From: Imbricaverruca yamaguchii
Lineage: Eukaryota; Arthropoda; Thecostraca; Neoverrucidae
DNA: 64,000 nucleotides
Direction of reading: 5' to 3'
NCBI GenBank assembly: GCA_034440575.1
Contig: JAOTOL010001348.1
Coordinates: 290,001 to 354,000 of the forward strand
This document shows, piece after piece, positions 2,605 through 48,984 of the stretch. A program made the translations under genes and the position numbers. The notes beneath the pieces were generated by a model. That model was not told where the DNA came from and did no database searches. It saw only the letters and a program-made list of their open reading frames with translations. Every line of letters starts with the position of its first letter. Position 1 is the stretch's first letter.

Positions 2605-2800
2605 TCATCGGTTCACCGACCACGTGCGCAGAAAGCGGTTCGGCTCGAGCGAGTCGAGGAACTCCTCGCCGCGAGTGTCGGTACTGTCGGTTCGCAGGTG
2701 GCCGATAGGTGGCGTTAGCTGTCGCGGGTTGAGCGAGTCCGGGTACGTAGTGTCGGCGGGAGTCCGCGGCGAAGGTGGCGCCAGTCTTGCTGGCCGCGGT
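2605..2800 (-). CDS. Cadherin terminal exon (C-terminal cytoplasmic tail)
   Basis: The acceptor TATGTTTCAG lies just before base 2800. One base (A) completes an AGA codon begun in the previous exon, followed by 64 codons and TGA at 2607-2605. The frame is proline-rich and then acidic, with EEFLDSLEPNRF near the end and a C terminus FLRTWSVNR. Third codon positions are strongly G/C like the other exons. Two other frames are also open here (one for 99 codons), but only this one matches the phase of the upstream exon. Confidence 0.75.
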
Positions 2801-5800
2801 CTGAAACATATTCAGTCACTGAAAAATCGGCCCCATCACATGCTAGCTGAAGTTCGTCTTTGAACAAGCTCAAGGAAGAGCTTTGAATTGAAAAGGTGAA
2901 TTGACCTGTAACTGCTAACATGAGTGTGACCCTTGTTCGTTCCACAGCTCTGTTCTGGTCTGAATCTTAGCAGCTGGTGTATATAAAACAAATTAGTTGT
3001 GAGAATTGGAAAGGAACTGGGTTGTGTGCAGGAGCAGACCCTTGCCCATGTCTAGGCACGAATATGATTCATGCTGATATCTAGGCAGTTGGTTCATAGG
3101 CAAGATACCTTATAAGCCACTACTACGCATTCAACACTGAAGCCTACCTTTTCCGTCCACCAGACACTAGGCTTTTGCCGAAGAGAGCTACACTTTTGTT
3201 CTGCGCCAGACTGCGTTTTGTCGTCAAGGCTCACCACACAGTCGCCCGTCCGCCGGAGACCACCTCTTACCGTAAAGATTTCCGAACATTTTGGTATCCA
3301 CCAGACACTGCATTTACCGCCAAGTCACAACAGCATTTGCCCTCCACCAGAGACTACCTTAGGCCGTAAAGGAACCCACACCTTTTGTTCACCAAACATT
3401 GTATGTTTACCGTCAAGACACTACGCAGTTTTTCCCCAGTTTTCCCGCCACCTTTTGCCGTAGAGTCCCGCACCTTTTACTCCCCACCAGACAGTGGGTT
3501 TTCCGTCAAGTCTACACCGTTTGCGGTCCGCCAGACTACCTTTTGCCGTAGAGTCCCGCACCTTTTACTCCCCACAAGACATTGGGTTTGCCGTCAAGTC
3601 TACACCGTTTGCGGTCCGCCAGACTACCTTTTGCCGTAGAGTCCCGCACCTTTTACTCCCCACCAGACAGTGGGTTTTCCGTCAAGTCTACACCGTTTGC
3701 GGTCCGCCAGACTACCTTTTGCCGTAGTCCACTGCGGGCAGCTCGGACGGCGACTCGCTGCAGAAGCTCATGGTGGCCACGCCCACCTCTGTGCCGTCGC
3801 CCAGGCTGTTGGTGGCCGACTGGCGGCGCACGTTGGCACCCGACAGAGGGCGCCGCTCTGGGCTCGGCACGTGCGTCAGCTGGCCGGCCGTCAGCTGGCC
3901 GGCCGTCAGCTGGCCGGCCGTCAGCTGGCCGGCCGTCAGCTGACCGGCCGTCAGCTGGCCGGACGTCAGCTGACCGGCCGTCAGCTGGCCGGCCGTCAGC
4001 TGGCCGGACGTCAGCTGGCCCGCCGGCCGACTGCCGGCCGGGTAGTTGAGGCTGCCGTAGCGGCGGTGCGAGGCCGGCGCGGCCGGCCGCCTCACCAGCG
4101 TCTGGGACAGCTGGTGCGCGTCGGCCACGTAGTGTCCCGGCGCCACCTGCGTGGCCGACAGGCGACGCGACGGCTTACTGTGGGCGGACCGGCGGTCGGT
4201 CAGTTCTGCTGCCATCGAGCTAACCGGGAGCTGGGCGCGCGCGCGCGCAGCTCTCGATATGGAGTCGGCCATTCTGGACTAATTATCCAGGGCAGAATAT
4301 GTGTGTAAGAAGTTACGTGCCACATGTCGTTCTACGACATTGCTGACCTCTGCCCCCCCCCCCCTCCATGGAGCGGAGCTGGTGCCTGTGCCCATGCATT
4401 ACATTACTGTGAGCCAAGTAGCCTCCTGACGGGGCGGGCGGAAAGCCTAACAGGTTACAAACCAGGACTAACACAACTCTGATCGATTAGGTCGTATAGC
4501 TTACTGTCGTCAAAACAGCGGTCCGACAAGCACATCTGCTACTTCTCGTCACGCGCGTGGAGCCCGAGGGCCACTGGTCACAACTAGCAGTAACAAACCC
4601 AAGGGAAAATGCCTGGCACGCCCCCACCACCACCGTTCCCTAACAAATATTTGTAGGAAAAAAAAACGAATCGCTTCTGCATTCATTTTATGCTGAGGCA
4701 TCTTTACTAAAGAAGCTATCCCTGCCCGAGTCGTCAATGCAATCACGATCAACGCCTAGCTTTTTTATCAAAGGTACGCGATTTGTCCAGTTCAATCTGA
4801 CCAGTGAGCCGTACACACAGCCCGCCTGTAGAGGGGCGCCTCTAGCACTAGACCCAGTCCACACAGCCCACCTGCAGAGGGGTGCCTCCAGCACCAGTCC
4901 CAGCCCACCTGTAGAGGGGCGCCTCCAGTACCAGTCAGTCCACACAGCCCACCTGTAGAGGGGCGCCTCCAGTACCAGTCCAGCCAGTCCAGCCCAGGGC
5001 CAGTACCAGTCCCAGCCCACCTGTAGAGGGGCGCCTCCAGCACCAGATCTAGTCCACCTGTAGAGGGGCACCTCTAGCACTAGACCCAGCCCACCTGTAG
5101 AGGGGCGCCTCCAGTACCAGTCAGTCCACACAGCCCACCTGTAGAGGGGCGCCTCCAGTACCAGTCCCAGCCCACCTGTAGAGGGGCGCCTCTAGCACTA
5201 GACCCAGTCCACACAGCCCACCTGCAGAGGGGTGCCTCCAGCACCAGTCCCAGCCCACCTGTAGAGGGGCGCCTCCAGTACCAGTCAGTCCACACAGCCC
5301 ACCTGTAGAGGGGCGCCTCCAGTACCAGTCCCAGTCCACCTGTAGAGGGGCGCCTCCAGCACCAGTCTCAGCCCACCTGTAGAGGGGCGCCTCCAGTACC
5401 AGTCAGTCCACACAGCCCACCTGTAGAGGGGCGCCTGCAGTACCAGTCCCACCCCACCTGTAGAGGGGCGCCTCCAGCACCAGTCTCAGCCCACCTGTAG
5501 AGGGGCGCCTCCAGTACCAGTCCCAGCTCGGTGGTCCGCCGCGGCCTCTTCTCCACCATCTCGCCGCGCGCCCGCAGTGACTTCATGGACGCGTTGCCGT
5601 TGGTGACGTCAGTGTGGCCGGTGGCCGGCGGCGGTGTGGAGCTGTAGCCACTCGCCGGCGGCGTCATGGTGAGCGGCGGGTACGGCGACGTCTTGTTCTG
5701 CCCCCTGTCGGGCGGTGGTGAATATTGTTAGCGGCGGGCACGGCGACGTCTTGTTCCGCTCCCTGTCGGTCGGTGGTGAATATTGTTAGCGGTGAGTACG

Positions 5801-8800
5801 GCGACGTCTTGTTCTGCTCCCTCTTGGATCGCAAGGCGTGTCAGTCGGTGGTAAGTGTGTTCTCTGTCGGATGCCAAGGGTGTTAGTCTGTGGTAAATGC
5901 TGTGGTCGGTGGTAAATGTGCGTGGCGCGAAACAAATATATGCCCGTAGGACTCATGCCATTGACATGTCTGTCAAACCACAAACCTAGATGTTCTGCAC
6001 CATCGGGCCTTGTTTGTCGTAAAGTCCTGATATGAGTTTGAACAGATATAATAAATGTTTTAAATTAGGGTAATGTACATATAAGGAACAGCTTAAATCA
6101 GCGTGGGTTCGTATTTGCGATAAATTAGTTCAATTTGCGGTCCTCAAAGCAGTCGAAAACGAATGTAGCTCGGATATTGCTAGTGCCGATACGAACACAG
6201 GCGATGATGGTTAATGCACGGTCGGCGGCACATATGTTTTCCAGCGGGGAGGAGGCGGCTAAGCAGTTCTCCACAAGTCATCCACAGTTCTTTTGTGGCC
6301 TTTTCAGTCTCGGGTGCCTCCCTGTGTTCTCTGTTCTCCAGCTGCTTTATGGGGCCTCCTGTTAGAGATCCTGACATGGAGCCTCCAAGCAACATGAGGG
6401 GGTCTTATTCTGATGGTGCGGGTCCTTTCGTGAGTCGTCCTGACCAAAGGGCATCCTGAGCATGAGTTCCCAGTCAGCGTCATGGTTTCTCCTGATCATT
6501 GTCGTGAGTTCTGGTGGCCTGTCCAGTCTAATGAGCCTCCTGATCAATAGGCTCCGTGTCGGATGGAGTTTTTTTCTCTTGAGATGTTTGCGCCCCTTGT
6601 TGATGCAATCTATGTTAATGCCCAATGACCTGCGGCCTCCGGGTAGGATGGGTCTGTTTTATGCTTAGGATGTTCCAAGCTGCCAAGGGTTGATAACCTG
6701 CGCCTTCCTCCCGTTTCATTGTAGGGTGCCACACCCCTGGTTGATTTTGCATAAAGTGAGCTGACACTCGGTAACCCCTTTCAGGGGTCTCACTGGGGCA
6801 CGTACCCGCCACTCATGGAGATTCGGCGCTCCTCTGACTGGGAGAAAGGTGCCCTTCATGAAGCTGGAGCGCGCATCCCTTTAGTTTTGTTTTCAACTGA
6901 AGTAGAAAAGGCGCCATTTCAGTGCCAGTCTCAACGCATCTCTCCAGTCCACCCACACACCCACACCCTCCCTTGAAATTGCACCAACCGGTGGCGCAGT
7001 TGTGAAGAAATTGCACCATAGAAGGTGAGTAGCACTGCCTATAGCATAATATCCGGACCCATCACGGATTCTCTTCAGTCTAGGCTAGTTGGCAGACTCG
7101 CTATGCCTTTTGGGAGCAAAATGCATGGAGTACATCGCAGAGCCAATATTGGATTTGATTTGAGTAGGGAAAGCGTCCAAAATTCTCAATGAGTTTTCGA
7201 ACAGGGCACAGAACGTCGGGGCGTTCAACGGGCAGCTCACTGAGCAGTCCTGCGCGCCCCTTATACGCTCTTCATAGCCCTTCAGAGTTGCGGAGTGTAG
7301 TTCCCCTCGGCCTTCTACTCTGAGGACTGATCAAGGCATGTGCGTTCGGGGGGACATTTTTGGCAAAGGTTCGTTGAATTTCATGCAGTTCCTCGGGTTT
7401 GGATAGTGCACCTGAATGTGGTCATATTACAGCAACATTTTCTCAACCACATGTTCCTACATTTCGGATGAATATTGCTATTTCTTTTCAATACCTTTCG
7501 GAGAAGGGCAGTTTGATCGTGGACCATTTATGCTCTTACGTAAGAATACACCCAACGTCCCTTCCCTTTCCCCTGGGCGTGCCCCTTCCACGCGAGTTGA
7601 CCCACCTTCTGCAGCTCTTGCAGCAGAGCACGGCCAGCGTGAGCGACATCAGCAGGAATATGATGAGCGACAGGCCGACGATGATGAACTTGAGGTTGGT
7701 GTAGAAGCCGCGCGTCTCGTCCGCCGCCGGCCACATGCCGGCCAGTCTGACCCCCAGGTCAGCGTCGGCGCCTGAGGCCTCCGTCGGCAGGCCGGCCTCC
7801 AGTCGGCTGCCGGGACATGGCCGGTGTCAGCTTATGGACGTCGTATGGGACGTGATGTCGGACGCTTTGGGTGGACGTTGGGTTTGTCGCGCTCTCTGCT
7901 AGTCCAGACGGTGCACACGCTTCTCGCGGCGACTGGCGCTGGTACCCGGCGACCCCGCCGGTTATGGGGTTCGAGCCCACGATCTTGCGGCCGTGCATAA
8001 TGTACGCAAATGTACGCACACCATGCACACAGGTCAACCATACTCATCTGCTCATGACGAAATCATCAGACCTGCTCTACGTCTCGTTACTCCAATGCTA
8101 CGTTAACGTTATAATGCTGCATTAACCCATTTCACCAGCTTCTGTAAACCGACCACATCACGTATTCCCTCGTTGACAGATCGGGACATTGGAATGATCT
8201 GAAACTGTGCTTACTTTTGATTTTGCTACCGCATCACTAATATATATATATATATATATATTAAGCAATAAGTGGCATATAGAGAAAAACTATATTCTCA
8301 CAACAAAGCACAACATCAACGTTTCGGCCACAGGCCTTCTTCAGGATGAAGTGAGTTTCTCTTTCATATTCCTTCACTTCATCCTGAAGAAGGCCTGTGG
8401 CCGAAACGTTGATGCTTTGTTGTGAGAATATAGTTTCTCTCTATATGCCACTTATTGCTTAATTTGTCCAGATATTATTCAACATATATATATGTACATA
8501 TAAGTATATGTAATTATAAAATTTCGCCTATGGTGATTTCATAGACAGAATGGGCCCATAATTCTGCTTCACAGAACCAAACAGTTTGGGGAGTATCCAG
8601 CTACTGTTACCAGTGACGTCACGCCTCCACCGGTGACGTCATCACACTCACGCCAGCAGGTCGCGGCTGGCCAGCAGTGTCCTGGTTGCCGGGTCCAGCG
8701 CGTACAGCCACACGTCCGAGTAGCGGTCGTCAACCCTCCGCCCGTCCGTGTGCGCCGCCACCCGCACTATCCTCACGTCACCGGCCACCAGCCGACTCAG

Positions 8801-32800: not shown

Positions 32801-35800
32801 TGGCTCGCGCGGACTTTGACCTATCGTCCTTCTGATAGGCCTCAATGGTCAGTGAGACCACGTCCTGGTGTCGGTACAGATGAGGTCAGGTCATGGCAGT
32901 GGTGGTACCATAGGTTTACATCCGGTTTGTCGGATTATGAATCTGAGCAAATCCAACACGACGCCATGCATTCGATGTGGTGCCTGCAATTGATTCCTAC
33001 AATTGATGAGAGCACATTGCTTAATACATTAAGTGCCAGTCTTTTAAAAGGTCGGAGATACAGTGAGTGAACGCCAGGTCACGACCTCGTGTCAATGCAG
33101 TTATTAGCTGTATATTTCAACAATTTGTCTTTAATACACCGTGAAATATACAGTTGCAAGTTATATATTACTGTACCGACAAATGATCAGCGAAAAATAT
33201 AGTGCAAAATATTTACTCAAGTCTCCTTCCTAGGTTATATGAATTGTTTAATTCCAAATTTATGTTAGGGTGCATACATGTCTGGTCAATTAACATTGTT
33301 TCCATATCGGAATAGACTTGGTGGGCAGCGATGTTCTCGACGGGTTTTCAAAGTTTCACGTCAATACGTCTGGTTTTATGTCCGGTCACTGACATATTAC
33401 CAGAAATGTCCTGAGGGGACATGTATTGCAAATGCTCTGTAGAATATAGCGCGGACTATTATGAAGACAATTGACTAAGCCAGGGCAGTTGCGTACACTG
33501 CTCCCATATGTGCTGTGTCTGCTGTACCAAAATTATAATTTTAAGTTATCACTTTTTATACTTTTTGGTGACAATTTCCAGGAGATAAAAATCTTGTGTT
33601 CAAAGAAAAACCTTCAAAACCTGGGAAATAGTTGGCTTTGTTTTAATCCCATTCATTACCTTCTCTTATGTGCCATTTGATTCGAAAGTTGTCATCTTCA
33701 ACAGTTCATCACACATTGCGAAGTATTTGAACTTGGCGTGATCTGCGACCTTGACCTTCTCACGTGTCACCTGCGTTAGGATGCCTTCAGTTTTCATATG
33801 AACATCGAAGCATGGGGTCGCATTCGTTTTACGACCAGGTTCCGAAAACCACTGTGAAAACGGGCAACCGACTGCAGCCCGACATTCACCTCTTTGAGCG
33901 ATCTGGAAAGTCAATCAAACGAAATAGAGAAATCCTTCAAGCAGCTCTGAAAAGTGACCTTGCCGTGCTCACATTATCCAGCTGCTCCCGGTCCAGCGTC
34001 TTGACGAGCGTCAGCGCGCCGGTGCCGGGATCCATGCTGAAGTGGCCGGCGGCGTTGCCGGACCGGATGTGGTAGCCGAGCGGCTGGTCGATGGCCAGGT
34101 CTCCGTCATAGGCGAGGATCGGCGGCCTGGTGCTGACCAGCAGCCGCAGCGACCGCATCTGCAGCGGCCCAGCCAGTGGCTGAAGCCAGGTCGATCCAGA
34201 CGTGCGCGTATACAAGGGGGCGACGAGGGTGGTCTTTATAGTTCGGTAGTGCTGGCGAGGGCAGCAATGTTGATTTCTTTTCGCCTTTCTTAGGCTGGCT
34301 CATGAAATAGATCCAAAGATAGTCGAGGAATTTTTTGCGAATTGCAGCAAAGTAGAATAAAGTGATGGACTTTTGTATTTTAGTGAGCGTACTGAAATGA
34401 AATAGAGCCATGCCAAATCGGACGCTCTAAATTCCCAATGTAATGATGATCACAGCTCAACTAAGTGATCCAAACTCATTTTTCATGAAGCTTTTCAATG
34501 GTGAAGCGGGGCGAGAACCGTCGACACCGTCGACACGATGCACACTTCAGCACGCAGCTGGCGGTGCCAATAACACAAGACGGGATACAATTACAGAGAC
34601 GATGACACATGTTACGGTCGCGTGTGAGAACGATGCAACATAGCGACAATCAGCCTTGGTCTTGAATTCAGTAACAGTTCATTCACTTCCAAGTGGCTTT
34701 CGATTGTCACAGCCTGGTTACGCTGACGCTGACTGCATTCGCGATGCAATTCTCTACATGTGCCGAATGAGTAACGTTCTCCTTTTTCCTCTTCGGTCAC
34801 CGAGTTCAGAAGTTGCTGTAGCGTTTTGTTAGAATCCCTTGGGTTTCGTTAGAGCTTCCCGTTCCCTTCGAACAATCCTCCCTACATCTCCTGTCATCGC
34901 TCCGCCAAGGTCACCAACCACTCTGCCAAGGTCTGCCAACCGCTCTGCCAAGGTCGCCAACCGCTCCGCCAAGGTCCCCAACCGCTCTGCCAAGGTCTGT
35001 CAACCGCCCTGCCAAGGCCTGCCAACCGCTCTGCCAAGGTCCCCAACCGCTCTGCCAAGGTCTGCCAACCGCTCTGCCAAGGTCTGCCAACCGCTCTGCC
35101 AAGGTCTGTCAACCGCCCTGCCAAGGCCTGCCAACCGCTCCGCCAAGGCATGTCAACCGCTCTGCCAAGGCCTGCCAACCGCTCTGCCAAGGCCTGCCAA
35201 CCGCTCTGCCAAGGTCGCAGCGCGGTAATCAGCTGACGCTCGGAACACACCGTGCTCACCTGGGGCCCCCAGTACACCGTGTTCAACTGAGGCCCCCAGT
35301 ACACCGTGTTCAACTGGGGCCCCCAGTACACCGTGTTCAACTGAGGCCCGGGGTACTCCGTCACCGTCTCACCTGAGGCCCCGGGTACCCCGTCACAGTC
35401 TCACCTGGGGCCCCCAGTACACCGTGTTCAACTGAGGCCCAGGGTACTCCGTCACCGTCTCACCTGAGGCCACGAGTACTCAGTCGTCATCATCTCACCT
35501 GAGGCCCCGGGTACTCCGTCATAATCTCACCTGAGGCCCCGGGTACTCCGTCATCATCATCTAACCTGAGGCCCCGGGTACTCCGTCATCATCTCACCTG
35601 AGGCCCCGGGTACTCCGTCATCATCATCTAACCTGAGGCCCCGGGTACTCCGTCACAGTCTCACCTGAGACCCCGGGTACTCCGTCATCATCTCACCTAA
35701 GGCCCCGGGTACTCCGTCATCATCTCACCTGAGGCCCCGGGTACTCCGTCATCATCTCACCTGAGGCCCCGGGTACTCCGTCACAGTCTCACCTGAGGCC

Positions 35801-38800
35801 CCGGGTACTCCGTCACAGTCTCACGTGAGGCCCCGGGTACTCCGTCATCATCATCTCACCTGAAGCCCGGGTACTCCGTCACCGTCTCACCTGAAGCCCC
35901 GGGTACTCCGTCACAGTCTCACCTGAGGCCCCGGGTACTCCGTCGTTATCATCTCACCTGAGGCCCCGGGTACTCCGTCGTTATCATCTCACCTGAGGCC
36001 CCGGGTACTCCGTTGTTATCATCTCACCTCAGGCCCCGGGTACTCCGTCACAGTCTCACCTGAGGCCCCGGGTACTCCGTCACAGTCTCACCTGAGGCCC
36101 CGGGTACTCCGTCACAGTCTCACCTGAGGCCCCGGGTACTCCGTCGTTATCATCTCACCTGAGGCCCCGGGTACTCCGTTGTTATCATCTCACCTGAGGC
36201 CCCGGGTACTTCGTCACAGTCTCACCTGAGGCCCCGGGTACTCCGTCACAGTCTCACCTGAGGCCCCGGGTACTCCGTCACAGTCTCACCTGAGGCCCCG
36301 GGTACTCCGTCACAGTCTCACCTGAGGCCCCGGGTACTCCGTCACAGTCTCACCTGAGGCCCCGGGTACTCCGTCACAGTCTCACCTGAGGCCCCGGGTA
36401 CTCCGTCACAGTCTCACCTGAGGCCCCGGGTACTCCGTCACAGTCTCACCTGAGGCCCCGGGTACTCCGTCACAGTCTGACCTGAGGCCCCGGGTACTCC
36501 GTCACAGTCTCACCTGAGGCCCCGGGTACTCCGTCGTTATCATCTCACCTGAGGGCCCGGGTACTCCGTCACAGTCTCACCTGAGGCCCCGGGTACTTCG
36601 TCACAGTCTCACCTGAGGCCCCGGGTACTCCGTCACTATCATCTCACCTGAGGCCCCGGGTACTCCGTCGTTATCATCTCACCTGAGGCCCCGGGTACTC
36701 CGTCACAGTCTCACCTGAGGCCCCGGGTACTCCGTCGTTATCATCTCACCTGAGGCCCCGGGTACTCCGTCACAGTCTCACCTGAGGCCCCGGGTACTCC
36801 GTCACCTGGGCCCGGTAGACGGCGGACGTAAACATAGGCGGCTGGTCGTCGCCATCGCTGACCGTGATCGTCAGGCGCGCGCGACTCAAGTGAGCTGGAG
36901 AACCTCGGTCCTGGGGAAATTAACGGCAGCGATTGTAGCCACAGATGAGGTCATGGGCCGGGCTTTGACGAAGATGGCGCAGATGTTCGACTATAACACT
37001 ATAAAGCCACAGCGGCAAGGCATCCCACTTCATGATCAAAGACAGCAAATATCGGTCGCAGTTTCGTGATTTATGGTAGTGCCGGGCACAGAATGGGGTG
37101 GTTCGCCACACTTGGGTTATCCGGCTGGTTGGTTGCATGTTTTGTTGTAATGACCAATGCGCTGGCAGTTAAAACAGCGAAGAGGATTATAAATATTGAC
37201 ACGGACTTGGTATCGAAGGTAGCCAGCGAAGAGTGTTTTGGGAAGAGTAGTGGAGTTGAAGGCAAGGACTAAAAGACTCGTGTCACGTTTACAGCCGTCT
37301 TTAAAGTAGGTAAGGCGGCGGACGTGGGTCATCGCCTCCGGCCTGAGCTCCGCCTGGATATCTGACTCAGACGTGAAGCGGAGCTCCGGCGCGAAGGCGA
37401 TGCCTCTGGTGGTGTTGCCATTGGGGTGAAGAGGATAGTGATGGACTTACCACATGCGGTGGTGCAGAGGAGAGCTCTGATCTGCGCTCGGGTTTGTGTT
37501 TTGATGATAAGAGTTCCCTTGATCAGGACTTCGATGTCAGGATTGACATCGAAGCAGATGACGAGGAATTACTTAGTTGGGCAGAAAACGTTGATACGAC
37601 GGAAGGGAACGGTTTTCTCGACAGGCTTCACGACTACGTAAAAGCCAGCACAGTCGAGGTGGAGTTCGGTGGATTGGGTTGGTTCAGATTCGGATGGGGT
37701 GGTCTGATTCGAGCATGGGTCAGCGGCATGGAATGTGATGGTCTGGCCCGGATCGTGAGACGTGGTCGTGGTCTTGGGACGATCAGGGTCGGAGAGGCAC
37801 AAAGAGCTTCCATGGCGTCATCCAAAGGAATTATCCGGCGCGGGTCATCGACGGGTGTACCAAGTCAGGGCAAAGACCTGAGTCGCGCGATGGTCGTCAG
37901 GTTTGGTCAAAGGTGGAAATTCCTACTCGGAGTACGGTGGAGAGCTGGGCTTCAGGTTAATTTTGCGTTTGTCTCCATTGCAGGGAAAATCCCTACCTAA
38001 TGAAATCCACACAAGCACAAAGAACACCTAGAAACACAGGGAACAAAAGCACGCCGAAGAAAAACCACATGGTGTGGCGGGTGTCGCCCCACATGAACAC
38101 GAAATGTGGAAAAGAGCGACGAGTGTCTCCACACGAAAATGAAGGATAGCACTGCGAAAGTAGCAGCCAATCAGGCCAGACTGGCAGGCAGCGAACTATA
38201 ATAGCACTGACTCTCCACTACCGACCACCTGTGCGGTGGACGACGTATTGCATGGCTGCCGACGGATGCTGCTGCTTTCTGGGAGACCGTGCGCACTCGT
38301 GTAATTAAACTATGGAATCTGAGGAAGAAAAAACAAATAGCACATCTAAACCGATAACGCGGTCGATCTGTTCCACTCACCGAGGCGGTGATGGTGAGAT
38401 TCAATTCGCGATCTCCGTTTTCGAAATCGAACGGTTTGTCCAGCACGACGGCGGTGCCACCTCTGAGCAGCGGCGACAGGCTGAACTTGAGGTCCTCATT
38501 GCCGCTCGATATCCAGTAGTAGATGTCGCTGTTTGCTGTGTTGGCCCTGTCTCCGTCCTTTGCCACCACCAGGTCGTATATCACCATGCCTGGATACAAC
38601 CGGACACATGATGTCGATCACATTCGTCACATTTATATATACATATATCTTTTATACGTACGAATGTGTCAATATATATAACTATGTGCGTGTGTGGTTG
38701 TGGGTGGGTGTGGGTGTGCATGCATACGACATGACCAAAACACGAGCGCGAAAGGTACAAAGGTACGGCCTCCACAAATGTGTGAAAAGGCGGCGCAAAT

Positions 38801-39595
38801 GACCTTTATGGTCCGGCACGCCTCAAAAAACCACTCTCCCCCCAAATGTGTGAGCTCCTCGGCAGTGAACTGTTGCTCACACGTGAGATGACCTGGCGCC
38901 GGTTGACCTCTGTGGGATGAGCTGGCGCCGACTGACCTCTGTGGGATGACCTGGCGCCGACTGACCTCTGTGGGATGAGCCGGCGCCGACCGACCTCTGT
39001 GGGATGAGCCGGCGCCGACTGACCTCTGTGGGATGAGCCGGCGCTGACTGACCTCTGTGGGATGAGCCGGCGCCGACTGACCTCTGTGGGATGACCTGGC
39101 GCCGACTGACCTCTGTGGGATGAGATGTCGCCGACTGACCTCTGTGGGATGACCTGGCGCGGACTGACCTCTGTGGGATGACCTGGCGCGGACTGACCTC
39201 TGTGGGATGACCTGGCGCCGACTGACCTCTGTGGGATGACCTGGCGCGGAATGACCTTTGGGTGTGAGCTCGTCCACGTTGACCCGGTAGGGTGCTGTTG
39301 CTGACCTGTGGGATGACCTGGCGCGGAATGACCTTTGGGTGTGAGCTCGTCCACGTTGACCCGGTAGGGTGCTGTTGCTGACCTGTGGGATGACCTAGCG
39401 CCCACTGACCTCTGGGTGTGAGCTCGTCCACGTTGACCCGGTAGGGTGCTGTTGCTGACCTGTGGGATGACCTGGCGCGGACTGACCTCTGGGTGTGAGC
39501 TCGTCTACGGTGACCTGGTAGGGTTCGCCCACAAACTGGGGCCGGTGATCGTTGACGTCCTCGATGTAGAGAGTGATCAGCAGCGAGTCGGAACC
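2605..39595 (-). CDS. Non-classical cadherin (CDH23/PCDH15-like layout), 20 exons, 5' end missing
   Basis: Overview of the gene; exons are listed separately. The exons, in order, are 39595-39487, 38589-38381, 36910-36782, 34158-33973, 32864-32667, 31323-31154, 29557-29422, 28808-28552, 26825-26704, 21609-21413, 20991-20836, 19957-17735, 17157-17059, 15706-15605, 10131-10043, 8804-8652, 7806-7606, 5704-5495, 4219-3716 and 2800-2605. All junctions are GT-AG and phase-matched, and the sum is 5646 bp (1881 codons plus stop). The product is a single-pass adhesion receptor with about twelve calcium-binding cadherin repeats. These carry DVNDHRPQF, DLNDNRPDF, DSNDNNPAF, DVNDNPPRF, DLNDNDPVF and DVNDNAPTF linkers and LDRE/LDFE motifs. 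A membrane-adjacent domain, a transmembrane helix and a long cytoplasmic tail follow. No catenin-binding sequence was recognised. The membrane-adjacent region resembles that of cadherin-23 and protocadherin-15, so a role in apical or microvillar membrane links is possible, by inference only. Nine exon edges carry tandem copies of themselves. Confidence 0.9.
2801..3129. other. Last cadherin intron, non-repetitive part
   Basis: Intron sequence between the terminal exon and the decayed end of the 88-bp array. Nothing else was recognised. Confidence 0.5.
3130..3715. repeat. ~88-bp array copying the donor of the adjacent exon
   Basis: Three near-identical units lie next to the exon, and several increasingly diverged units stretch away to about 3130. 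On the - strand each unit contains CTACGGCAAAAG followed by GTAGTCTGG. That is the last bases of exon 4219-3716 plus its donor site and about 70 intron bases. Confidence 0.85.
3716..4219 (-). CDS. Cadherin cytoplasmic exon with pentapeptide repeat
   Basis: The exon has 167 full codons of cytoplasmic tail. It is Ser/Arg/Pro-rich and contains about ten tandem AGQLT-type pentapeptides (3880-4025), with variants SGQLT. It ends with SESPSELPAVDYGK and a split codon. The donor is AAAAG/GTAGTC; if it were not used, a stop (TAG) follows at once. The start is less certain. I chose the acceptor GGTTAG before 4219, which is in phase with the CTACAG/GTGGGC donor of the previous exon. The alternative is acceptor GCCCAG at about 4230 paired with a donor ACTG/GTACTG, which is also in phase. 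Confidence 0.75.
3880..4025 (-). repeat. Coding 15-bp tandem repeat in cadherin tail
   Basis: About ten 15-bp units (cagctggccggccgt on +) encode AGQLT in frame inside the cytoplasmic exon. Variants change one base (tgaccggcc, ggacgtcag) and give S for A or leave the residue unchanged. This is a polymorphism-prone stretch. Confidence 0.85.
4220..4799. other. Cadherin intron, unique sequence
   Basis: Includes a (CG)n run at 4234-4248 directly upstream of the exon and a poly-C run at about 4352. No gene was seen. Confidence 0.5.
4800..5494. repeat. ~35-55-bp array copying the donor of exon 5704-5495
   Basis: There are about 18-19 units. On the - strand each carries CTGGAGGCGCCCCTCTACAG directly followed by GTGGGCTG, the end of the adjacent exon plus its donor. 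Some units carry an extra piece ending GTGTGGACTGACTGG. The donor GTGGGC is kept in nearly every unit. Confidence 0.88.
5495..5704 (-). CDS. Cadherin cytoplasmic exon 1 after the membrane
   Basis: The exon gives 69 full codons plus split codons at both ends, reading RGQNKTSPYPPLTM at the start and EKRPRRTTELGL near the end. The acceptor is CCGACAG before 5704, in phase with the transmembrane exon donor (AAG/GTGGGT). The donor CTACAG/GTGGGC at 5495 is itself the first unit of the adjoining array, so the last 11 residues (LGLVLEAPLYR) may be repeat-derived. This exon has its acceptor duplicated on one side and its donor on the other. Confidence 0.8.
5690..5835. repeat. ~57-bp triplication of the acceptor of exon 5704-5495
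   Basis: Three units on the - strand each carry a CACCACCG pyrimidine context, CCGACAG, and then the exon's opening bases (GAACAAGACGTCGCCGT). The copy nearest the exon body is the one in use by phase. Confidence 0.8.
5836..7605. other. Cadherin intron, no gene seen
   Basis: Open frames on both strands are short and show no family resemblance. A weak internal repetition of 'cctcctga' phrases lies at 6350-6560. Confidence 0.5.
7606..7806 (-). CDS. Cadherin transmembrane exon
   Basis: The acceptor is CCCGGCAG before 7806 and the donor AAG/GTGGGT after 7606; both ends are in phase with their neighbours. The exon reads RLEAGLPTEASG, then GFYTNLKF, a 22-residue hydrophobic helix (IIVGLSLIIFLLMSL plus TLAVLCC) and a basic stop-transfer KSCRR. 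This fixes the topology: repeats outside, tail inside. Confidence 0.93.
7880..8005 (+). repeat. Possible tRNA-derived SINE fragment
   Basis: Contains GGGTTCGAGCCCACGATC at about 7968, an exact match to the RNA polymerase III B-box (GGTTCGANNCC). No clear A-box was found, so this may be a fragment. It lies in the intron upstream of the transmembrane exon. Confidence 0.35.
8239..8262. repeat. (TA)n microsatellite
   Basis: An AT dinucleotide run abuts the fold-back element. Confidence 0.85.
8263..8462. mobile_element. Fold-back element with ~90-bp inverted arms
   Basis: The left arm (8263-8354) and right arm (8373-8462) are near-perfect inverted copies separated by about 18 bp. Each arm contains CTGAAGAAGGCC...GGCCGAAACG (right arm 8384-8408 on +). 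That matches the CUGANGA and GAAA core boxes of hammerhead ribozymes around a GGCC/GGCC stem. The flanking stem III and a cleavage triplet were not found, so catalysis is not claimed. Mobile-element origin is inferred from the fold-back structure and the TA-run flank. Confidence 0.6.
8652..8804 (-). CDS. Cadherin membrane-adjacent domain, exon 2
   Basis: The acceptor is GTTACAG before 8804 and the donor CTGGC/GTGAGT after 8652. It reads RLSRLVAGDVRIVRV, then a TDGRRVDDRYSDVWLY segment and SRDLLA. This has the look of the membrane-adjacent domain that follows the last cadherin repeat in cadherin-23/protocadherin-15 (alternating strands, D/N-rich loop, then RDLL before the helix). The first 30 bases and the acceptor are tandemly repeated upstream. 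Confidence 0.88.
8805..9375. repeat. ~54-bp array copying the acceptor of exon 8804-8652
   Basis: Ten units follow the exonic copy. On the - strand each has a TATGTACGTTACAG acceptor and then CCGGCTGAGTCGGCTGGTGG, the exon's first bases. CA-repeat length varies between units. The last unit (about 9340-9375) is diverged. Confidence 0.9.
9376..10042. other. Cadherin intron, AT-rich unique sequence
   Basis: Contains a degenerate run of ACATT/GGTAC phrases at 9530-9650. No gene was recognised. Confidence 0.5.
10043..10131 (-). CDS. Cadherin membrane-adjacent domain, exon 1
   Basis: The acceptor is TTGTCGACAG before 10131 (phase 0) and the donor GCCAG/GTACGC after 10043 (phase 2). It encodes IYVLDSRDMMVVMLNQ followed by TSEKVRQNRDRIA. 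The pattern IYVLxxxxxVVxxLNQxxExVRxN is typical of the strand that opens the membrane-adjacent domain in cadherin-23-like proteins. Confidence 0.9.
10150..10610. repeat. ~90-bp minisatellite, 3 units plus a ~65-bp pair
   Basis: Three nearly identical units run from 10165 to 10430, then two units of a related sequence run to 10600. The array lies just upstream (- strand sense) of exon 10131-10043 but does not contain its acceptor. Confidence 0.85.
10611..12040. repeat. 52-bp minisatellite rich in CACGTG
   Basis: About 27 units, each with two CACGTG hexamers and a GTGTCACAC palindrome. Two positions alternate among units (gactgc/gactac, actacttc/aattc), giving a two-letter variant pattern along the array. 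Confidence 0.9.
12041..13525. repeat. 30-bp minisatellite
   Basis: About 48 units of a sequence containing ccctgtggaccactactgac. The unit length is divisible by three and lacks stops, so two + frames and one - frame are open for over 400 codons. This is a repeat artefact, not a gene. Units fall into variant classes (gaggccc, gagaccc, gtacctc) arranged in longer-period blocks, for example 12100-12260 against 12940-13060. Confidence 0.92.
13690..15000 (+). pseudogene. LINE relic, I/R1-like reverse transcriptase
   Basis: A decayed non-LTR retrotransposon antisense to the cadherin. Recognisable in order are AVGPD (about 14055), FPASWSTCTIIHIVKP and SACKIFERMVN (about 14160-14282). After a stop come FRPRRSTVDNLMDIV, a VNLHSAFDKV block, GIKGRMATFFANFLENRSF, LGQGVPLGSVLSQ and IND (14290-14690). 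YGDDLAIWW, the catalytic YxDD box, lies at about 14715. The order and spacing are those of a reverse transcriptase. Several frame breaks and stops are present, so it is inactive. The 5' limit is unclear; the endonuclease is absent. Confidence 0.8.
15001..15604. other. Cadherin intron, no gene seen
   Basis: Contains a loosely repeated 'gttataactcgacaataggtcgatg' phrase (15400-15500). Nothing else was recognised. Confidence 0.45.
15605..15706 (-). CDS. Cadherin exon, end of last cadherin repeat
   Basis: 34 codons, phase 0 at both ends. The acceptor is TGGTTGCAG before 15706 and the donor ATG/GTGAGC. It reads MWLLRRADQLPQRIHRLQVT then ATDTANNTDELPVM, the F and G strands of a cadherin repeat (LxxxxxxHxLxVxAxDxAN) leading directly into the membrane-adjacent domain. 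Confidence 0.92.
16048..17058. repeat. 48-bp in-frame array copying the donor of exon 17157-17059
   Basis: About 21 units beyond the exonic copy. On the - strand each unit has 36 exon-derived bases (12 codons, RSMYSIDPARGQ) followed by GTGAGCCGACAG. The donor GTCAG/GTGAGC is retained in most units, and CCGACAG could act as an acceptor. Because 48 is divisible by three and no stop intervenes, an open frame runs through the whole array from the exon to 15754. Units close to the exon (16880-17040) are more diverged than the homogeneous interior. Confidence 0.92.
17059..17157 (-). CDS. Cadherin exon, middle of last cadherin repeat
   Basis: 33 codons, phase 0 at both ends. The acceptor is TTTGCTGCAG before 17157. 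It reads ASDMDAGDNVTYTIDVADAN, then VRSMYSIDPARGQ, the DxDxGDN calcium motif followed by the D/E strands. The donor GTCAG/GTGAGC at 17059 is the first of about 22 identical donors. Readthrough to later donors would add multiples of 16 residues in frame. Confidence 0.93.
17158..17734. other. Cadherin intron with short hairpin
   Basis: Otherwise unremarkable; a perfect inverted repeat (actgttgggga and its complement, 8-bp loop) lies at about 17651-17680. Confidence 0.55.
17735..19957 (-). CDS. Cadherin giant exon, about five cadherin repeats
   Basis: 741 codons without a stop, phase 0 at both ends. Calcium-linker motifs are DVNDNPPRF (residues 32-40 of the exon), DLNDNDPVF (446-454) and DVNDNAPTF (708-716). 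VDRE lies at 395-398 and LDFE at 643-646. Residues 140-230 are a low-complexity insert rich in A/E/S between repeats. Two Cys pairs (about 410/414 and 431/435) suggest a disulfide-stabilised loop. The start is set at CGTCAG before 19957 because KRHQLSFTVV continues the LDFE ending of the previous exon. The donor is AAAG/GTACGT. One long exon among many short ones suggests loss of introns here. Confidence 0.95.
19958..20835. other. Cadherin intron, AT-rich with TATATA microsatellite
   Basis: A degenerate tandem run of TTATATATTATATAGAT-like phrases occupies about 20020-20240. The remainder (20480-20680) has a loose repetition of 'aataatattgacaat'. No gene was seen. Confidence 0.6.
20836..20991 (-). 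CDS. Cadherin exon
   Basis: 52 codons, phase 0 at both ends. The acceptor is a strong pyrimidine tract TCTCTCCTTCCAG before 20991 and the donor GAG/GTCAGT. It reads ENSSNVTIGRLIAEPH and ends LRLLSPLDFE, typical of strands A-E of a cadherin repeat, and joins to KRHQLSF of the next exon. Confidence 0.95.
21240..21340 (+). repeat. Possible tRNA-derived SINE fragment
   Basis: GGGGTTCGATTCTCC at about 21307 matches a polymerase III B-box, with GCAAGGCTGAGCGCCTGG upstream. It sits in the intron between exons 21609-21413 and 20991-20836. Confidence 0.3.
21413..21609 (-). CDS. Cadherin exon
   Basis: Two bases plus 65 codons. The acceptor is TGCGCGCAG before 21609 and the donor TTG/GTAAGT. It reads PFEVEANTGYIQVSDPLN, then STYSLAIDVTDG, and ends SLTFEVL, which joins ENSSNV of the next exon. 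The linker here (VAENAQESFKSASLTF) lacks the DxNDN motif, so this repeat boundary may bind less calcium. Confidence 0.94.
22862..23855. repeat. Large inverted duplication inside the LINE
   Basis: The left arm (about 22862-23326, inverted) and right arm (about 23381-23855, sense) both encode the same linker segment, including KPAWFTPDLIKAIKAKK, with a spacer of about 55 bp. The arms differ at scattered bases, so the event is not brand new or was repaired with error. It implies fold-back synthesis or twin priming. Confidence 0.88.
24239..24316. repeat. Two adjacent perfect palindromes interrupting the RT frame
   Basis: The first has 15-bp arms starting gaaacagattgatta around a 2-bp centre. The second is a 36-bp uninterrupted palindrome from cccatgttgagtatcttt. 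Together they replace the normal residues just before QHGFR and split the reverse transcriptase frame. Confidence 0.9.
25621..26703. other. Cadherin intron, no gene seen
   Basis: Contains a 14-bp poly-G run (about 26166) and two loosely related copies of a CCGCCCCTCYCC phrase (25690 and 26455). The second looks like an old inverted or direct TE duplicate. Confidence 0.4.
26704..26825 (-). CDS. Cadherin exon
   Basis: One base, 40 codons and one base. The acceptor is TTGGTTCGCAG before 26825 and the donor GAGTCAG/GTGCGG. It reads ISPGQRIWVGKDVQPGSRVG, then QLIVDDPDGDDLTFRLRDES, strands A to C of a cadherin repeat with the DDPDGDDL calcium motif. The joined codon GTT (V) leads to PFEVEANTG. Confidence 0.94.
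27000..27245. repeat. 60-bp minisatellite, 4 almost identical units
   Basis: Units alternate ggtacc and ggtgcc versions of a GTAC-rich half-unit (30 bp each). GTAC/TGTACA palindromes recur. It lies about 175 bp upstream (- strand sense) of exon 26825-26704 and does not contain its acceptor. Confidence 0.9.
27525..28510. repeat. ~34-bp C-rich minisatellite
   Basis: About 28 units (+ strand phrase accaccgccccgacaccacg). The middle (27800-28020) has many small insertions and deletions in homopolymer C/G runs, which may be sequencing error. It begins about 40 bp past the donor of exon 28808-28552. It opens very long false frames in several registers. Confidence 0.88.
28552..28808 (-). CDS. Cadherin exon
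   Basis: 85 codons plus two bases. The acceptor is GCCCCGCCGCAG before 28808 and the donor GCCCAG/GTCAGT. It reads VLATDPDEGDNGRITYSFEN, then GGRPVFSVSPTGGELLQL, and ends VLVRVHNVRPP. It supplies the DPDEGDNG calcium motif and the C-G strands of a repeat; the following linker is degenerate (HNVRPPR in place of DxNDNxP). Confidence 0.94.
28809..29030. repeat. 45-bp array copying the acceptor of exon 28808-28552
   Basis: About five units. On the - strand each carries CCTGCCCCGCCGCAG followed by GTGCTGGCCAC, the acceptor and the first 11 exon bases. Units alternate at one position (CTTGACC/CATTGACC). Confidence 0.9.
29196..29223. repeat. (AC)n microsatellite
   Basis: A short CA-dinucleotide run in the intron. 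Confidence 0.8.
29422..29557 (-). CDS. Cadherin exon
   Basis: One base plus 45 codons. The acceptor is CCCGTTGCAG before 29557 and the donor AAG/GTAAGC. It reads RQTRSVTRVIINLLDSNDNN, then PAFVPTNTYQFVVEGNS, and ends VGRIIGK. It contains the canonical DSNDNNPAF linker and the start of the next repeat (VVEGNSSVG), continuing into VLATDPDEG. Confidence 0.95.
29650..31153. other. Cadherin intron with degenerate ~63-bp repeat
   Basis: About five diverged copies of a 'ctcgatgatgatatttagcc' phrase lie at 29870-30110. The rest, apart from the SINE-like segment, shows nothing recognisable. Confidence 0.6.
30735..30905 (-). repeat. tRNA-derived SINE-like element
   Basis: On the - strand from about 30900, GGATGGCGGAATGGTTAAGG resembles a tRNA-Leu/Ser A-box region. 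GTTGGACT follows, and then GGTTCAACACT, a near B-box, about 45 bases on. A non-tRNA body follows (about 30840-30735). No stable cloverleaf could be drawn for the whole, so I read it as SINE rather than a functional tRNA. Confidence 0.5.
31154..31323 (-). CDS. Cadherin exon
   Basis: 56 codons plus two bases. The acceptor is TTCCTCCCAG before 31323 and the donor CTCAG/GTATGC. It reads GNNSKFTYVLDDPSGTFGLD, then PVTGWLTVADQSKLDREVR, and ends YADELTPNVL. It is a classic cadherin core (DxxTGxLTVxxxLDRE) and completes the DADQGNNSKF motif begun in the previous exon. Confidence 0.95.
31690..32666. repeat. Composite array copying the donor of exon 32864-32667
   Basis: Higher-order units of roughly 150-180 bp are built from 30-45-bp pieces. 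On the - strand many pieces carry TCAG/GTACTGATGACCTG, identical to the exon's donor context; others carry CTGGTACTG variants. The array runs right up to the exon. Confidence 0.85.
32667..32864 (-). CDS. Cadherin exon
   Basis: 66 codons, phase 0 at both ends. The acceptor is CGACACCAG before 32864 and the donor GATCAG/GTACTG. It reads DVVSLTIEAYQKDDRSKSAR, then TVTDLNDNRPDFVVDRYN, and ends VQVHATDADQ. It carries the DLNDNRPDF linker and the first half of the next repeat. Confidence 0.95.
32865..33972. other. Cadherin intron, no gene seen
   Basis: AT-rich unique sequence with only short, unsupported open frames. Confidence 0.5.
33973..34158 (-). CDS. Cadherin exon
   Basis: 62 codons, phase 0 at both ends. 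The acceptor is GCCGCTGCAG before 34158 and the donor GATAAT/GTGAGC. It reads MRSLRLLVSTRPPILAYDGD, then QPLGYHIRSGNAAGHFSMD, and ends TLDREQLDN. This is a complete A-E strand block, joining DVVSLTIEAY. The start could be a few codons further in (CAG acceptors at CTGGTCAG or CACCAG), but only CTGCAG keeps phase with the upstream exon. Confidence 0.92.
34159..34900. other. Cadherin intron, no gene seen
   Basis: Unique sequence between the exon and the next arrays. Nothing was recognised. Confidence 0.5.
34901..35225. repeat. ~20-bp minisatellite
   Basis: About 15 units of a 'gctctgccaaggtctgccaacc' type with two spacing variants. The array is intronic and carries no exon-edge sequence. Confidence 0.85.
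35250..36781. repeat. 32-bp array copying the donor of exon 36910-36782
   Basis: About 47 units. On the - strand each carries GAGTACCCGGGGCCTCAG directly followed by GTGAGAC, that is, about 24 exon bases plus the donor and a few intron bases. A second unit class has GTGAGATGATAACGACGG in place of GTGAGACTGTGACGG. The donor CAG/GTGAGA is almost invariant. The far end (35250-35460) is diverged. Confidence 0.93.
36782..36910 (-). CDS. Cadherin exon
   Basis: 43 codons, phase 0 at both ends. The acceptor is AATTTCCCCAG before 36910. It reads DRGSPAHLSRARLTITVSDG, then DDQPPMFTSAVYRAQVTEYP, and ends GPQ. It holds the G strand and a variant linker DGDDQPPMF. Two donors are possible, GCCCAG/GTGACG (7 codons earlier) and CCTCAG/GTGAGA; both are in phase 0, and the second is the repeated one. 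Confidence 0.93.
36985..37830 (-). pseudogene. Jockey-type LINE ORF1 (gag-like) relic
   Basis: The - strand frame from about 37415 reads FAPELRFTSESDIQAELRPE, LTYFKDGC, then LAFNSTTLPKTLFAGYL and NPLRCFNCQRIGHYNKTC. The last is a CCHC zinc knuckle (C-x2-C-x4-H-x4-C) preceded by the AGYLxxxVRxxIxNPLRC signature of ORF1 proteins of jockey/RTE-like elements. It is broken by stops and frameshifts both upstream (VKPVEKTVPF, about 37640) and downstream, and no endonuclease or RT follows. It lies in the intron between exons 38589-38381 and 36910-36782, in the same orientation as the host gene. Confidence 0.75.
38381..38589 (-). CDS. Cadherin exon
   Basis: Two bases plus 69 codons. The acceptor is TTGTATCCAG before 38589 and the donor TCG/GTGAGT. 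It reads MVIYDLVVAKDGDRANTANS, then DIYYWISSGNEDLKFSLSP, and ends LNLTITAS, which continues as DRGSPAH. It is a full B-F strand block, with ANTANSDIYYWI in the DxNxN calcium position. Confidence 0.95.
38640..38720. repeat. TATA and GTGGGT microsatellite runs
   Basis: Short TATATACAT and (TGTGGG)n runs in the intron. Confidence 0.7.
38885..39486. repeat. 29-bp and ~82-bp arrays copying the donor of exon 39595-39487
   Basis: Near the exon, about three long units on the - strand carry TACCGGGTCAACGTGGACGA, then GCTCACACCCARAG/GTCA, about 35 exon bases plus the donor. Further away about 13 short 29-bp units keep only CACAGAG/GTCAGTCGGCGCCAGG. A long-to-short hierarchy is visible. Confidence 0.9.
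39487..39595 (-). CDS. Cadherin exon (most 5' one identified)
   Basis: 36 codons plus one base. The acceptor is GCCGTTGCAG before 39595 and the donor CCCAGAG/GTCAGT. It reads GSDSLLITLYIEDVNDHRPQ, then FVGEPYQVTVDELTPR. It has a canonical DVNDHRPQF linker and the A strand of the next repeat (VDELTPRGMVIYDL across the junction). Since it opens mid-repeat, at least one more exon must lie upstream; none was found. Confidence 0.94.
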
Positions 39596-48378: not shown

Positions 48379-48984
48379 TACGAGCGTTTACATTAGGAGT
48401 GATCTAGATCTTAGGGACTCGCTATTCAATGCTGCCCTGTCCCACATTTATAATTTAACCAGAGCACCTGCATGACGTCTCCGAAATAATGCCCTTCTGC
48501 CTCAATCCATTGCTTGCGGGTCCCATGTTTTTCATGAATTAGTACATAGCATCGACATCATCTGAGAATAAACCTGCGCATTCGCCAAGCATTTACGCTG
48601 CCGACTAACAACTCGTTTAAATTACCGAGCGCGGAACAGAGCAGGTGTCGAGGTGCTCCAACCACATAGCTGGGGCACATATTGTGTTCGCTCTTAATAG
48701 GGCCTGTTCTGGCTGTCAACATGTCCAGCTGAACAGACGATCGTGAAAAACATCCAGCGATGGAGTGCAGTAAATGATGGAGATAACTTCCGTTAAATAT
48801 GTTACAAACCTTCCCTTGCAAACAAGGAAATGTGCGTTCCGTCCTTTCTTCCGACGAATACTGCGCAGATCATTTCACACTCAGAATTTTTGTAATCGAA
48901 GGACAGCCTTCACCATGACGGTCTGTCACAGTTGTCAGCTGATTGTGGTATGGACCGAATCTTCCATGCCGTGGCTGACCTCGT
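48379..48984. other. No gene seen
   Basis: Unique sequence with short frames only. Confidence 0.4.

What the first reader, a model, noticed from the sequence alone, without database searches (positions are those of the whole stretch)
2605..39595. Minisatellites built from the host gene's own exon edges and splice sites
Seen directly: nine exon edges of one cadherin gene are continued by tandem arrays whose unit is exonic bases, the splice site and intron bases. Donor copies flank exons ending at 3716, 5495, 17059, 32667, 36782 and 39487; acceptor copies flank exons starting at 5704, 8804 and 28808. Each edge has its own unrelated unit, so this is not one dispersed repeat family. Ordinary intronic minisatellites (10.1-13.5, 27.0, 27.5-28.5 and 34.9 kb) coexist without exon edges. 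Inference: splice junctions here act as seeds for local tandem duplication, producing introns filled with decoy splice sites. Possible consequences are variable exon length, splicing buffering, or intron growth by exon-edge duplication. I know of no named system that matches this.
Basis: partly seen in the sequence, partly recalled or inferred. Interest (0 to 1): 0.88.

Follow-up and report, generated by a model that had tools for sequence, protein, structure and literature searches.

The report
Tandem decoy splice sites at exon edges
In what is likely a barnacle genome, many exon borders of the genes examined are copied over and over in tandem into the neighbouring intron, giving rows of decoy splice sites that likely arise because GC-rich exon borders are prone to duplication and that the cell would have to ignore; the same oddity has been described in lancelets.

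Summary
The gene lies on the minus strand; 20 exons join into one open 1867-codon frame with 19 GT-AG introns. It is not one gene: in 19 other cadherin-gene stretches, 24 of 136 intron-touching arrays cross a predicted edge against 6.2 expected under uniform seeding. The reading needs trimming. Units have no fixed phase. Arrays also crowd the first 50 bp of introns. GC explains part of the excess (33 of 296 edges in array seeds, 12.7 GC-matched); against GC-matched donor-like intronic sites it shrinks to 1.3x; by plain coverage there is none. Decoy GT/AG are no more conserved than the same dinucleotides elsewhere in the units. 'No named system' is wrong: amphioxus 'mirages' are the same structure (PMC3087553, PMC3902484). 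New here are the arthropod host and the density. Best reading: GC-biased tandem duplication whose products survive across exon edges, the exon-proximal splice site presumably still in use (no RNA available).

The parts
38883..39524 (-). Donor array at exon 1 of the model (exon 39595-39487); 29-bp unit with longer 77-bp variant copies; 38 exonic bp
   Evidence: TRF; donor CCAGAG|GTCAGT
35247..36805 (-). Donor array at exon 3 (36910-36782); 32/35-bp unit, about 45 copies; 24 exonic bp
31701..32674 (-). Donor array at exon 5 (32864-32667); compound array on a 41-bp unit; 8 exonic bp
28798..29021 (-). Acceptor array at exon 8 (28808-28552); 45-bp unit, 5.0 copies; 11 exonic bp
16034..17095 (-). 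Donor array at exon 13 (17157-17059); 48-bp unit, 22 copies, frame stays open throughout; 37 exonic bp
   Evidence: ortholog P0001 continues straight across the junction
8775..9384 (-). Acceptor array at exon 16 (8804-8652); 55-bp unit, 11 copies; 30 exonic bp
   Evidence: ortholog P0001
5672..5822 (-). Acceptor array at exon 18 (5704-5495); 58-bp unit, 2.6 copies; 33 exonic bp
   Evidence: ortholog P0001
4814..5527 (-). Donor array at exon 18; 37/44-bp units; 33 exonic bp
   Evidence: ortholog P0001
3450..3727 (-). Donor array at exon 19 (4177-3716); 88-bp unit, 3.2 copies; 12 exonic bp
   Evidence: ortholog P0001 (two-residue gap here)
2605..39595 (-). Cadherin-family gene, 20 modelled exons, 1867 codons to the stop; closest named relative 'protocadherin Fat 3-like' of Pollicipes pollicipes; the frame begins in mid-protein and exons upstream of 39595 were not found
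3874..4025 (-). Coding in-frame minisatellite in exon 19, 15-bp unit x10 (GQLTA/GQLTS), missing in the ortholog: shows that exon-internal duplication also occurs

Best explanation
These are 'mirage' minisatellites: tandem arrays whose unit spans an exon edge, likely made by local tandem duplication that favours GC-rich exon borders, and likely tolerated because splicing would keep to the exon-proximal copy. Shown: the arrays, the exon model, the recurrence in other genes of the genome (by predicted edges), the GC dependence, and the lack of extra conservation at decoy splice dinucleotides. Also shown: different copy numbers between two diverged copies of one other cadherin region. Inferred: a duplication (slippage or misrepair) starts an array at a random phase, and unequal exchange then expands it. 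Copies wholly inside coding sequence are purged unless in frame. Copies across an edge survive because the outermost site, the one whose use leaves the protein unchanged, stays next to the exon body and is chosen (exon definition, recalled knowledge). The remaining copies become intron and drift.
For: Exact edges and open frame. 9 of 39 edges in arrays in the window gene. 24 of 136 arrays against 6.2 expected in 19 other cadherin stretches, and 14 against 3.1 when only PF00028-supported exons count. Distance gradient over the window gene, 19 cadherin and 6 myosin stretches: crossing 35 vs 9.3, within 50 bp 35 vs 15.2, 50-100 bp 17 vs 14.3, beyond 100 bp 103 vs 151. Seeding weight rises with GC from 0.49 to 3.45 for arrays more than 50 bp from an edge. 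No fixed phase. Decoy dinucleotide mismatch 39 of 667 against 115 of 1928 for the same dinucleotides elsewhere in the units. Edge arrays do not differ in homogeneity from distant ones (p 0.33), so no sign that they merely last longer. In the duplicated cadherin region 9 of 11 edge arrays have a counterpart and all 9 differ in copy number, while 11 of the 13 predicted exons that aligned (14 tried) are 96.6-99.6% identical. In 8 of 9 window arrays an in-frame stop lies inside the array, so use of most inner copies would truncate the protein. In 8 of 9 window arrays other sites score at least as high as the true site, so strength alone would not pick it.
Against: No RNA was available, so use of the exon-proximal site is inferred. 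After GC matching a 2.6x excess at edges remains (33 of 296 vs 12.7), which GC alone does not explain. By plain coverage edges are not enriched: 35 of 212 edges (16.5%) against 20.3% of intronic bases in the 19 stretches. In the 6 myosin stretches only 2 arrays were counted as crossing (1.0 expected), with one more found by eye (L027 donor 6764). Edges outside the window come from a home-made gene finder with 31 of 34 edges right on the window gene, part of its own training data. The enrichment figures assume that each array grew from one unit.
Confidence: 0.68

Rival explanations
1. Exon edges are true duplication hot spots: something coupled to splice sites (RNA-DNA hybrids at splice-site pauses, or breakage of splice-like motifs) starts the arrays.
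For: Residual 2.6x excess at real edges after GC matching; the excess peaks at the edges; acceptor-like sites on the sense strand 38 of 664 vs 20.8 GC-matched (1.83x) against 23 of 670 vs 21.7 on the antisense strand (threshold 4).
Against: Against GC-matched donor-like intronic sites the excess is only 33 vs 24.9; donor-like sites are as enriched on the antisense strand (19 of 470 vs 12.5) as on the sense strand (16 of 480 vs 12.8), so motif or composition matters; no fixed unit phase; excess continues 50 bp into introns; missed exons could inflate the sense-strand counts.
Confidence: 0.2
2. Decoy copies are kept because they do something in splicing (buffering, alternative exon ends, recursive splicing).
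For: 307 of 342 decoys keep GT/AG; in 8 of 9 window arrays other sites score as high as the true one; the 48-bp unit at 17059 is in frame and open through the array. A first ungapped count suggested conservation (permutation p 0.02-0.04).
Against: With gapped alignment, over 31 arrays with three or more decoys, the splice dinucleotides mismatch like the same dinucleotides elsewhere (5.85% vs 5.96%), and permutation gives p 0.08 (cells) and 0.78 (columns); in 3 of 38 arrays the decoy consensus is not GT/AG at all. Unit lengths show no preference for multiples of 3 (13 of 35). In-frame stops lie in 8 of 9 window arrays.
Confidence: 0.05
3. Survival bias: arrays arise evenly, but those touching exons last longer because deletions that remove them would also hit the exon.
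For: In the duplicated region 9 of 11 edge arrays but only 2 of 7 intronic arrays have a counterpart in the other copy, and unique intron there is mostly unalignable.
Against: Longer survival predicts more diverged copies; edge arrays do not differ in homogeneity from distant ones (p 0.33). Homogenisation within arrays weakens this argument.
Confidence: 0.15
4. The exon borders are misplaced and the arrays are partly coding.
For: The frame stays open through the whole array at 17059.
Against: 20 exons join into one open frame with GT-AG throughout, and the ortholog is collinear across E12-E20 without repeat insertions at the junctions; in-frame stops lie in the other eight arrays.
Confidence: 0.04

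Closest known systems
Amphioxus 'mirages' (Adh3; globins BflGb6 and BflGb9; troponin C; PGBD5)
   Same: Minisatellite-like tandem repeats spanning exon-intron boundaries, at both 5' and 3' borders, with AG/GT signals in many copies; units 10-160 bp; copy number differs between haplotypes; reported not to disturb normal splicing (passages of PMC3087553 and PMC3902484; the original Adh paper is known to me only as cited there)
   Different: Arthropod host (likely a barnacle) instead of a lancelet; 9 of 39 edges in one gene and 24 of 195 predicted edges in other cadherin genes; enrichment, GC dependence and lack of decoy conservation measured here. The passages seen report single genes. No shared ancestry is claimed.
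[quoted passage not shown] potato RdRp case, PMC4974935, abstract read)
   Same: Tandem duplication across an intron-exon boundary that brings along splice signals
   Different: There the duplication creates a new intron; here existing introns grow and no new intron was seen
Internal tandem repeats that modify human gene structure in segmental duplications (PMC2812944, passages read)
   Same: Minisatellite units at exon-intron boundaries can change exon or intron structure
   Different: Cases among recent human paralogs; here a high density of arrays with decoys that show no extra conservation

Membership tests
Mirage minisatellites | Tandem repeat whose unit spans an exon-intron boundary | tested here: met
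   Nine of nine reported edges
Mirage minisatellites | Occurs at both donor and acceptor borders | tested here: met
   6 donor and 3 acceptor arrays in the window gene; 16 and 8 in 19 other stretches
Mirage minisatellites | Many copies keep AG/GT signals | tested here: met
   307 of 342 decoys in 38 arrays
Mirage minisatellites | Normal splicing undisturbed | not testable with these tools
   No RNA; ortholog collinearity is indirect
Mirage minisatellites | Copy number unstable between alleles or copies | tested here: met
   9 of 9 edge arrays shared by two copies of another cadherin region differ in copy number; alleles and paralogs not told apart; not tested for the window gene
Mirage minisatellites | Somatic instability (reported for amphioxus Adh3) | not testable with these tools
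   One assembly only
Intron gain by tandem duplication | A new intron bounded by both copies of the duplication | tested here: not met
   Each of the nine arrays holds one edge of an existing intron, none spans both
Splice-site-seeded duplication system | Fixed phase of the unit relative to the splice site | tested here: not met
   Exonic share of the unit fits uniform, KS p 0.16, 31 of 33 arrays
Splice-site-seeded duplication system | Excess at edges beyond composition and motif | tested here: inconclusive
   2.6x after GC matching; 1.3x and 2.0x against GC-matched donor-like and acceptor-like intronic sites

The most novel reading that the evidence does not exclude
Exon edges are a mutational hot spot of their own in this lineage: splice junctions trigger tandem duplication beyond what GC content predicts, so introns grow outward from exon borders by copying them, a standing route to longer introns and to new splice sites genome-wide.
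Probability: 0.22. Interest if true: 0.82.

Novelty: new member of a known kind. Interest (0 to 1): 0.58.

Why it matters
If the density holds genome-wide, this is a natural experiment on splice-site choice: rows of equally strong sites, of which the outermost leaves the protein intact. It would also show an intron-growth route acting on roughly one exon edge in ten (33 of 296 in the genes sampled), in an arthropod far from the lancelet case, which makes the origin of exon-edge repeats testable by comparing two distant lineages.

Tried and rejected
Selection on decoys: an ungapped count suggested conserved GT/AG. A gapped wrap-around alignment over 38 arrays (35 of the 55 rows, plus 3 from the myosin stretches) removed it. 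Dropped were the 11 rows of L022/L023 as non-independent, 8 rows whose exonic part exceeded 1.35 units and 1 row with under 4 exonic bp. I therefore reject the first signal as an alignment artefact.

Fixed unit phase: rejected. Preference for unit lengths in multiples of three: none seen, 13 of 35. Coding arrays: rejected for eight of nine edges by in-frame stops, and for 17059 by the ortholog.

L017 was dropped because about 6 kb of it is masked. One search, which still held it, counted 41 of 220 edges in arrays. Predicted exons with 40% or more of their length in arrays, and edges within 20 bp of a stretch's ends, were dropped, which lowered the arrays crossing an edge from 33 of 136 to 24 of 136. 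Arrays with units above 200 bp were left out; the window's 41-bp array, reported by TRF with a longer period, was entered as 41. L022/L023 were left out of the enrichment counts. The myosin stretches used laxer exon thresholds. Rfam found nothing in the window at gathering scores.

Not found in print: the listings show no paper on exon-edge minisatellites in barnacles or other crustaceans; only open-licence PMC papers are searched, and most listed papers were not opened. A look into an amphioxus huntingtin paper (PMC2206037, passages) added nothing.

Full report
WHAT WAS CHECKED. The window is G000:C1115:290001-354000 of a 767 Mb, 1430-contig assembly. I rebuilt the gene on the minus strand: 20 exons, 19 GT-AG introns, one open frame of 1867 codons ending in a stop. 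The closest named relative is 'protocadherin Fat 3-like' of the goose barnacle Pollicipes pollicipes, 591 of 1017 columns identical; taxonomy places it in Cirripedia. The ortholog is collinear across exons 12-20 without inserted repeats at the junctions (a two-residue gap at 3716), which supports edges 17059, 8804, 5704, 5495 and 3716. The other four edges rest on frame, splice consensus and cadherin sequence.

IN THE WINDOW GENE. Of 21 arrays, 9 cross an edge, 1 is wholly exonic and in frame, and 11 are intronic; arrays cover 36% of intronic bases. Which null is right matters. By plain coverage edges are not enriched (9 of 39, 23%). But arrays grow after they start, so the fair question is where the first unit lay. 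With each array collapsed to one unit and uniform seeding, 1.35 crossings are expected and 9 of 22 arrays cross (P 2e-6). With GC matching the window gene alone gives 8 of 39 edges in seeds against 2.8. The window was picked because a reader noticed it, so an independent sample was needed.

OTHER GENES OF THE SAME GENOME. Cadherin exons were located by PF00028 (150 of 278 candidates scored), 20 stretches of 10 kb were fetched, and exons were predicted with a small splice-and-codon model. On the window gene this gave 17 predicted exons, 14 of them exact, and 31 of 34 edges right; the gene was part of its training. One stretch (L017) was dropped as masked. In the other 19, 24 of 136 intron-touching arrays cross an edge against 6.2 expected (P 5e-9). 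Before array-like exons were removed the figure was 33 of 136 against 7.2, and with PF00028-supported exons only it was 14 against 3.1. By plain coverage, 35 of 212 edges (16.5%) lie in arrays against 20.3% of intronic bases. Six myosin stretches add two counted crossings (1.0 expected) and 12 arrays within 50 bp (2.6 expected). L029 has a homology-supported acceptor array with an 87-bp unit, and L027 has a donor array at 6764 that the gene finder missed. No unselected stretch could be sampled.

GRADIENT, GC AND MOTIF. Over the window gene and the 25 stretches, arrays cross edges 35 times (9.3 expected) and end within 50 bp of one 35 times (15.2 expected). At 50-100 bp there are 17 (14.3 expected) and beyond 100 bp 103 (151 expected). 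Unarrayed intron within 25 bp of an edge is 62% GC against 48-50% beyond 100 bp, and even arrays more than 50 bp away prefer GC-rich sequence; this alone predicts a 1.9x excess at edges. With direct GC matching, 33 of 296 edges lie in seeds against 12.7 expected (2.6x). Splice-like sites far from exons give 1.25x and 1.83x on the sense strand and 1.51x and 1.06x on the antisense strand (donor, acceptor; threshold 4; over three thresholds the range is 0.99-2.01x). Set directly against GC-matched far sites, the 33 edges compare with 24.9 (donor-like, 1.3x) and 16.6 (acceptor-like, 2.0x), from 10 of 217 and 15 of 291 sites, so these baselines are rough. Composition thus explains much of the effect and splice-like sequence some more; a remainder between about 1.3x and 2.6x stays open, and missed exons could inflate the sense-strand baselines.

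PHASE, AGE, DECOYS. The exonic share of the unit fits a uniform distribution (KS p 0.16, 31 of 33 arrays), so duplication breakpoints are not fixed to the splice site. Edge arrays do not differ in homogeneity from distant ones (34 vs 122 arrays, p 0.33) but are longer, with longer units. Of 342 decoys in 38 arrays, 307 keep GT or AG; in 3 arrays the decoy consensus is something else. In the 31 arrays with three or more decoys these columns mismatch in 39 of 667 cells, against 115 of 1928 for the same dinucleotides elsewhere. The earlier hint of conservation came from ungapped alignment. In 8 of 9 window arrays other sites score at least as high as the true site. Yet in 8 of 9 an in-frame stop lies inside the array, in 6 of 9 within one unit, so use of most inner copies would truncate the protein. 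Inference: the spliceosome keeps to the exon-proximal site, and the rest is intron.

INSTABILITY. On C1415 a cadherin region occurs twice in inverted order. Of 14 predicted exons of one copy, 13 aligned to the stretch fetched from the other: 11 at 96.6-99.6% identity, the others at 91.8% and 80.7%. Of 12312 bp of unique intron only 1907 bp aligned (11 of 20 pieces, 84% identity); about the first 1.8 kb lies beyond the fetched part of the other copy. Nine of 11 edge arrays have a TRF counterpart, and all nine differ in copy number, for example 2.8 against 10.6 and 7.2 against 18.2. One of the other two is a doubtful edge array (L012 2253-2367). Two of seven intronic arrays have a counterpart. 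Whether the two copies are alleles or paralogs was not settled.

COMPARISON. Tandem duplications spanning exon-intron borders are known in amphioxus as 'mirages': Adh3, globins, troponin C and PGBD5 (passages of PMC3087553 and PMC3902484; the original Adh paper was not read). They share anatomy, both border types, decoy signals and copy-number differences, and are reported not to disturb splicing. A potato intron gained by duplication across a border (PMC4974935, abstract) and human repeat-modified genes (PMC2812944, passages) are neighbours in kind. My searches listed no report from a crustacean.

VERDICT. Observation confirmed; interpretation partly supported; a new host and an unusual density of a known kind. 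Edge-specific seeding remains open.

Noticed in passing
window 3874-4025 (-): In-frame coding minisatellite in exon 19 (15 bp x10, GQLTA/GQLTS in the predicted cytoplasmic tail), absent from the Pollicipes ortholog.
   Followed up: partly
window 16034-17059 (-): The 48-bp array at exon 13 keeps the reading frame open through the whole array, so inner-donor use would extend the protein by a cadherin-like repeat without a stop.
   Followed up: partly
G000:C1415 3157k-3281k (+) and 3353k-3497k (-); L011, L012, L022, L023: Large inverted duplicate of a cadherin region with near-identical exons and mostly unalignable introns in the part compared: a real palindrome-like duplication or two haplotypes joined in assembly.
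   Followed up: partly
window 22.5-25.5 kb (+) and 46138-48387 (-): Reverse-transcriptase-like frames; the second matches PF00078, the first was judged by eye from its translation and the piece scanned (24718-25497) had no Pfam match.
   Followed up: no
window 8262-8465: Pair of inverted copies of about 90 bp beside an AT microsatellite (seen by eye), looking like a small mobile element or its remnant in intron 16.
   Followed up: no
window 53118-58076: Very long array, 31-32-bp unit, about 160 copies, outside the modelled exons.
   Followed up: no
G000:C1272 95309-99684, C1274, C1138, C1314: Repeated myosin-head exons covering the same profile positions (about 377-436), three within 4.4 kb on C1272, as expected for alternative exons of muscle myosin.
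   Followed up: no
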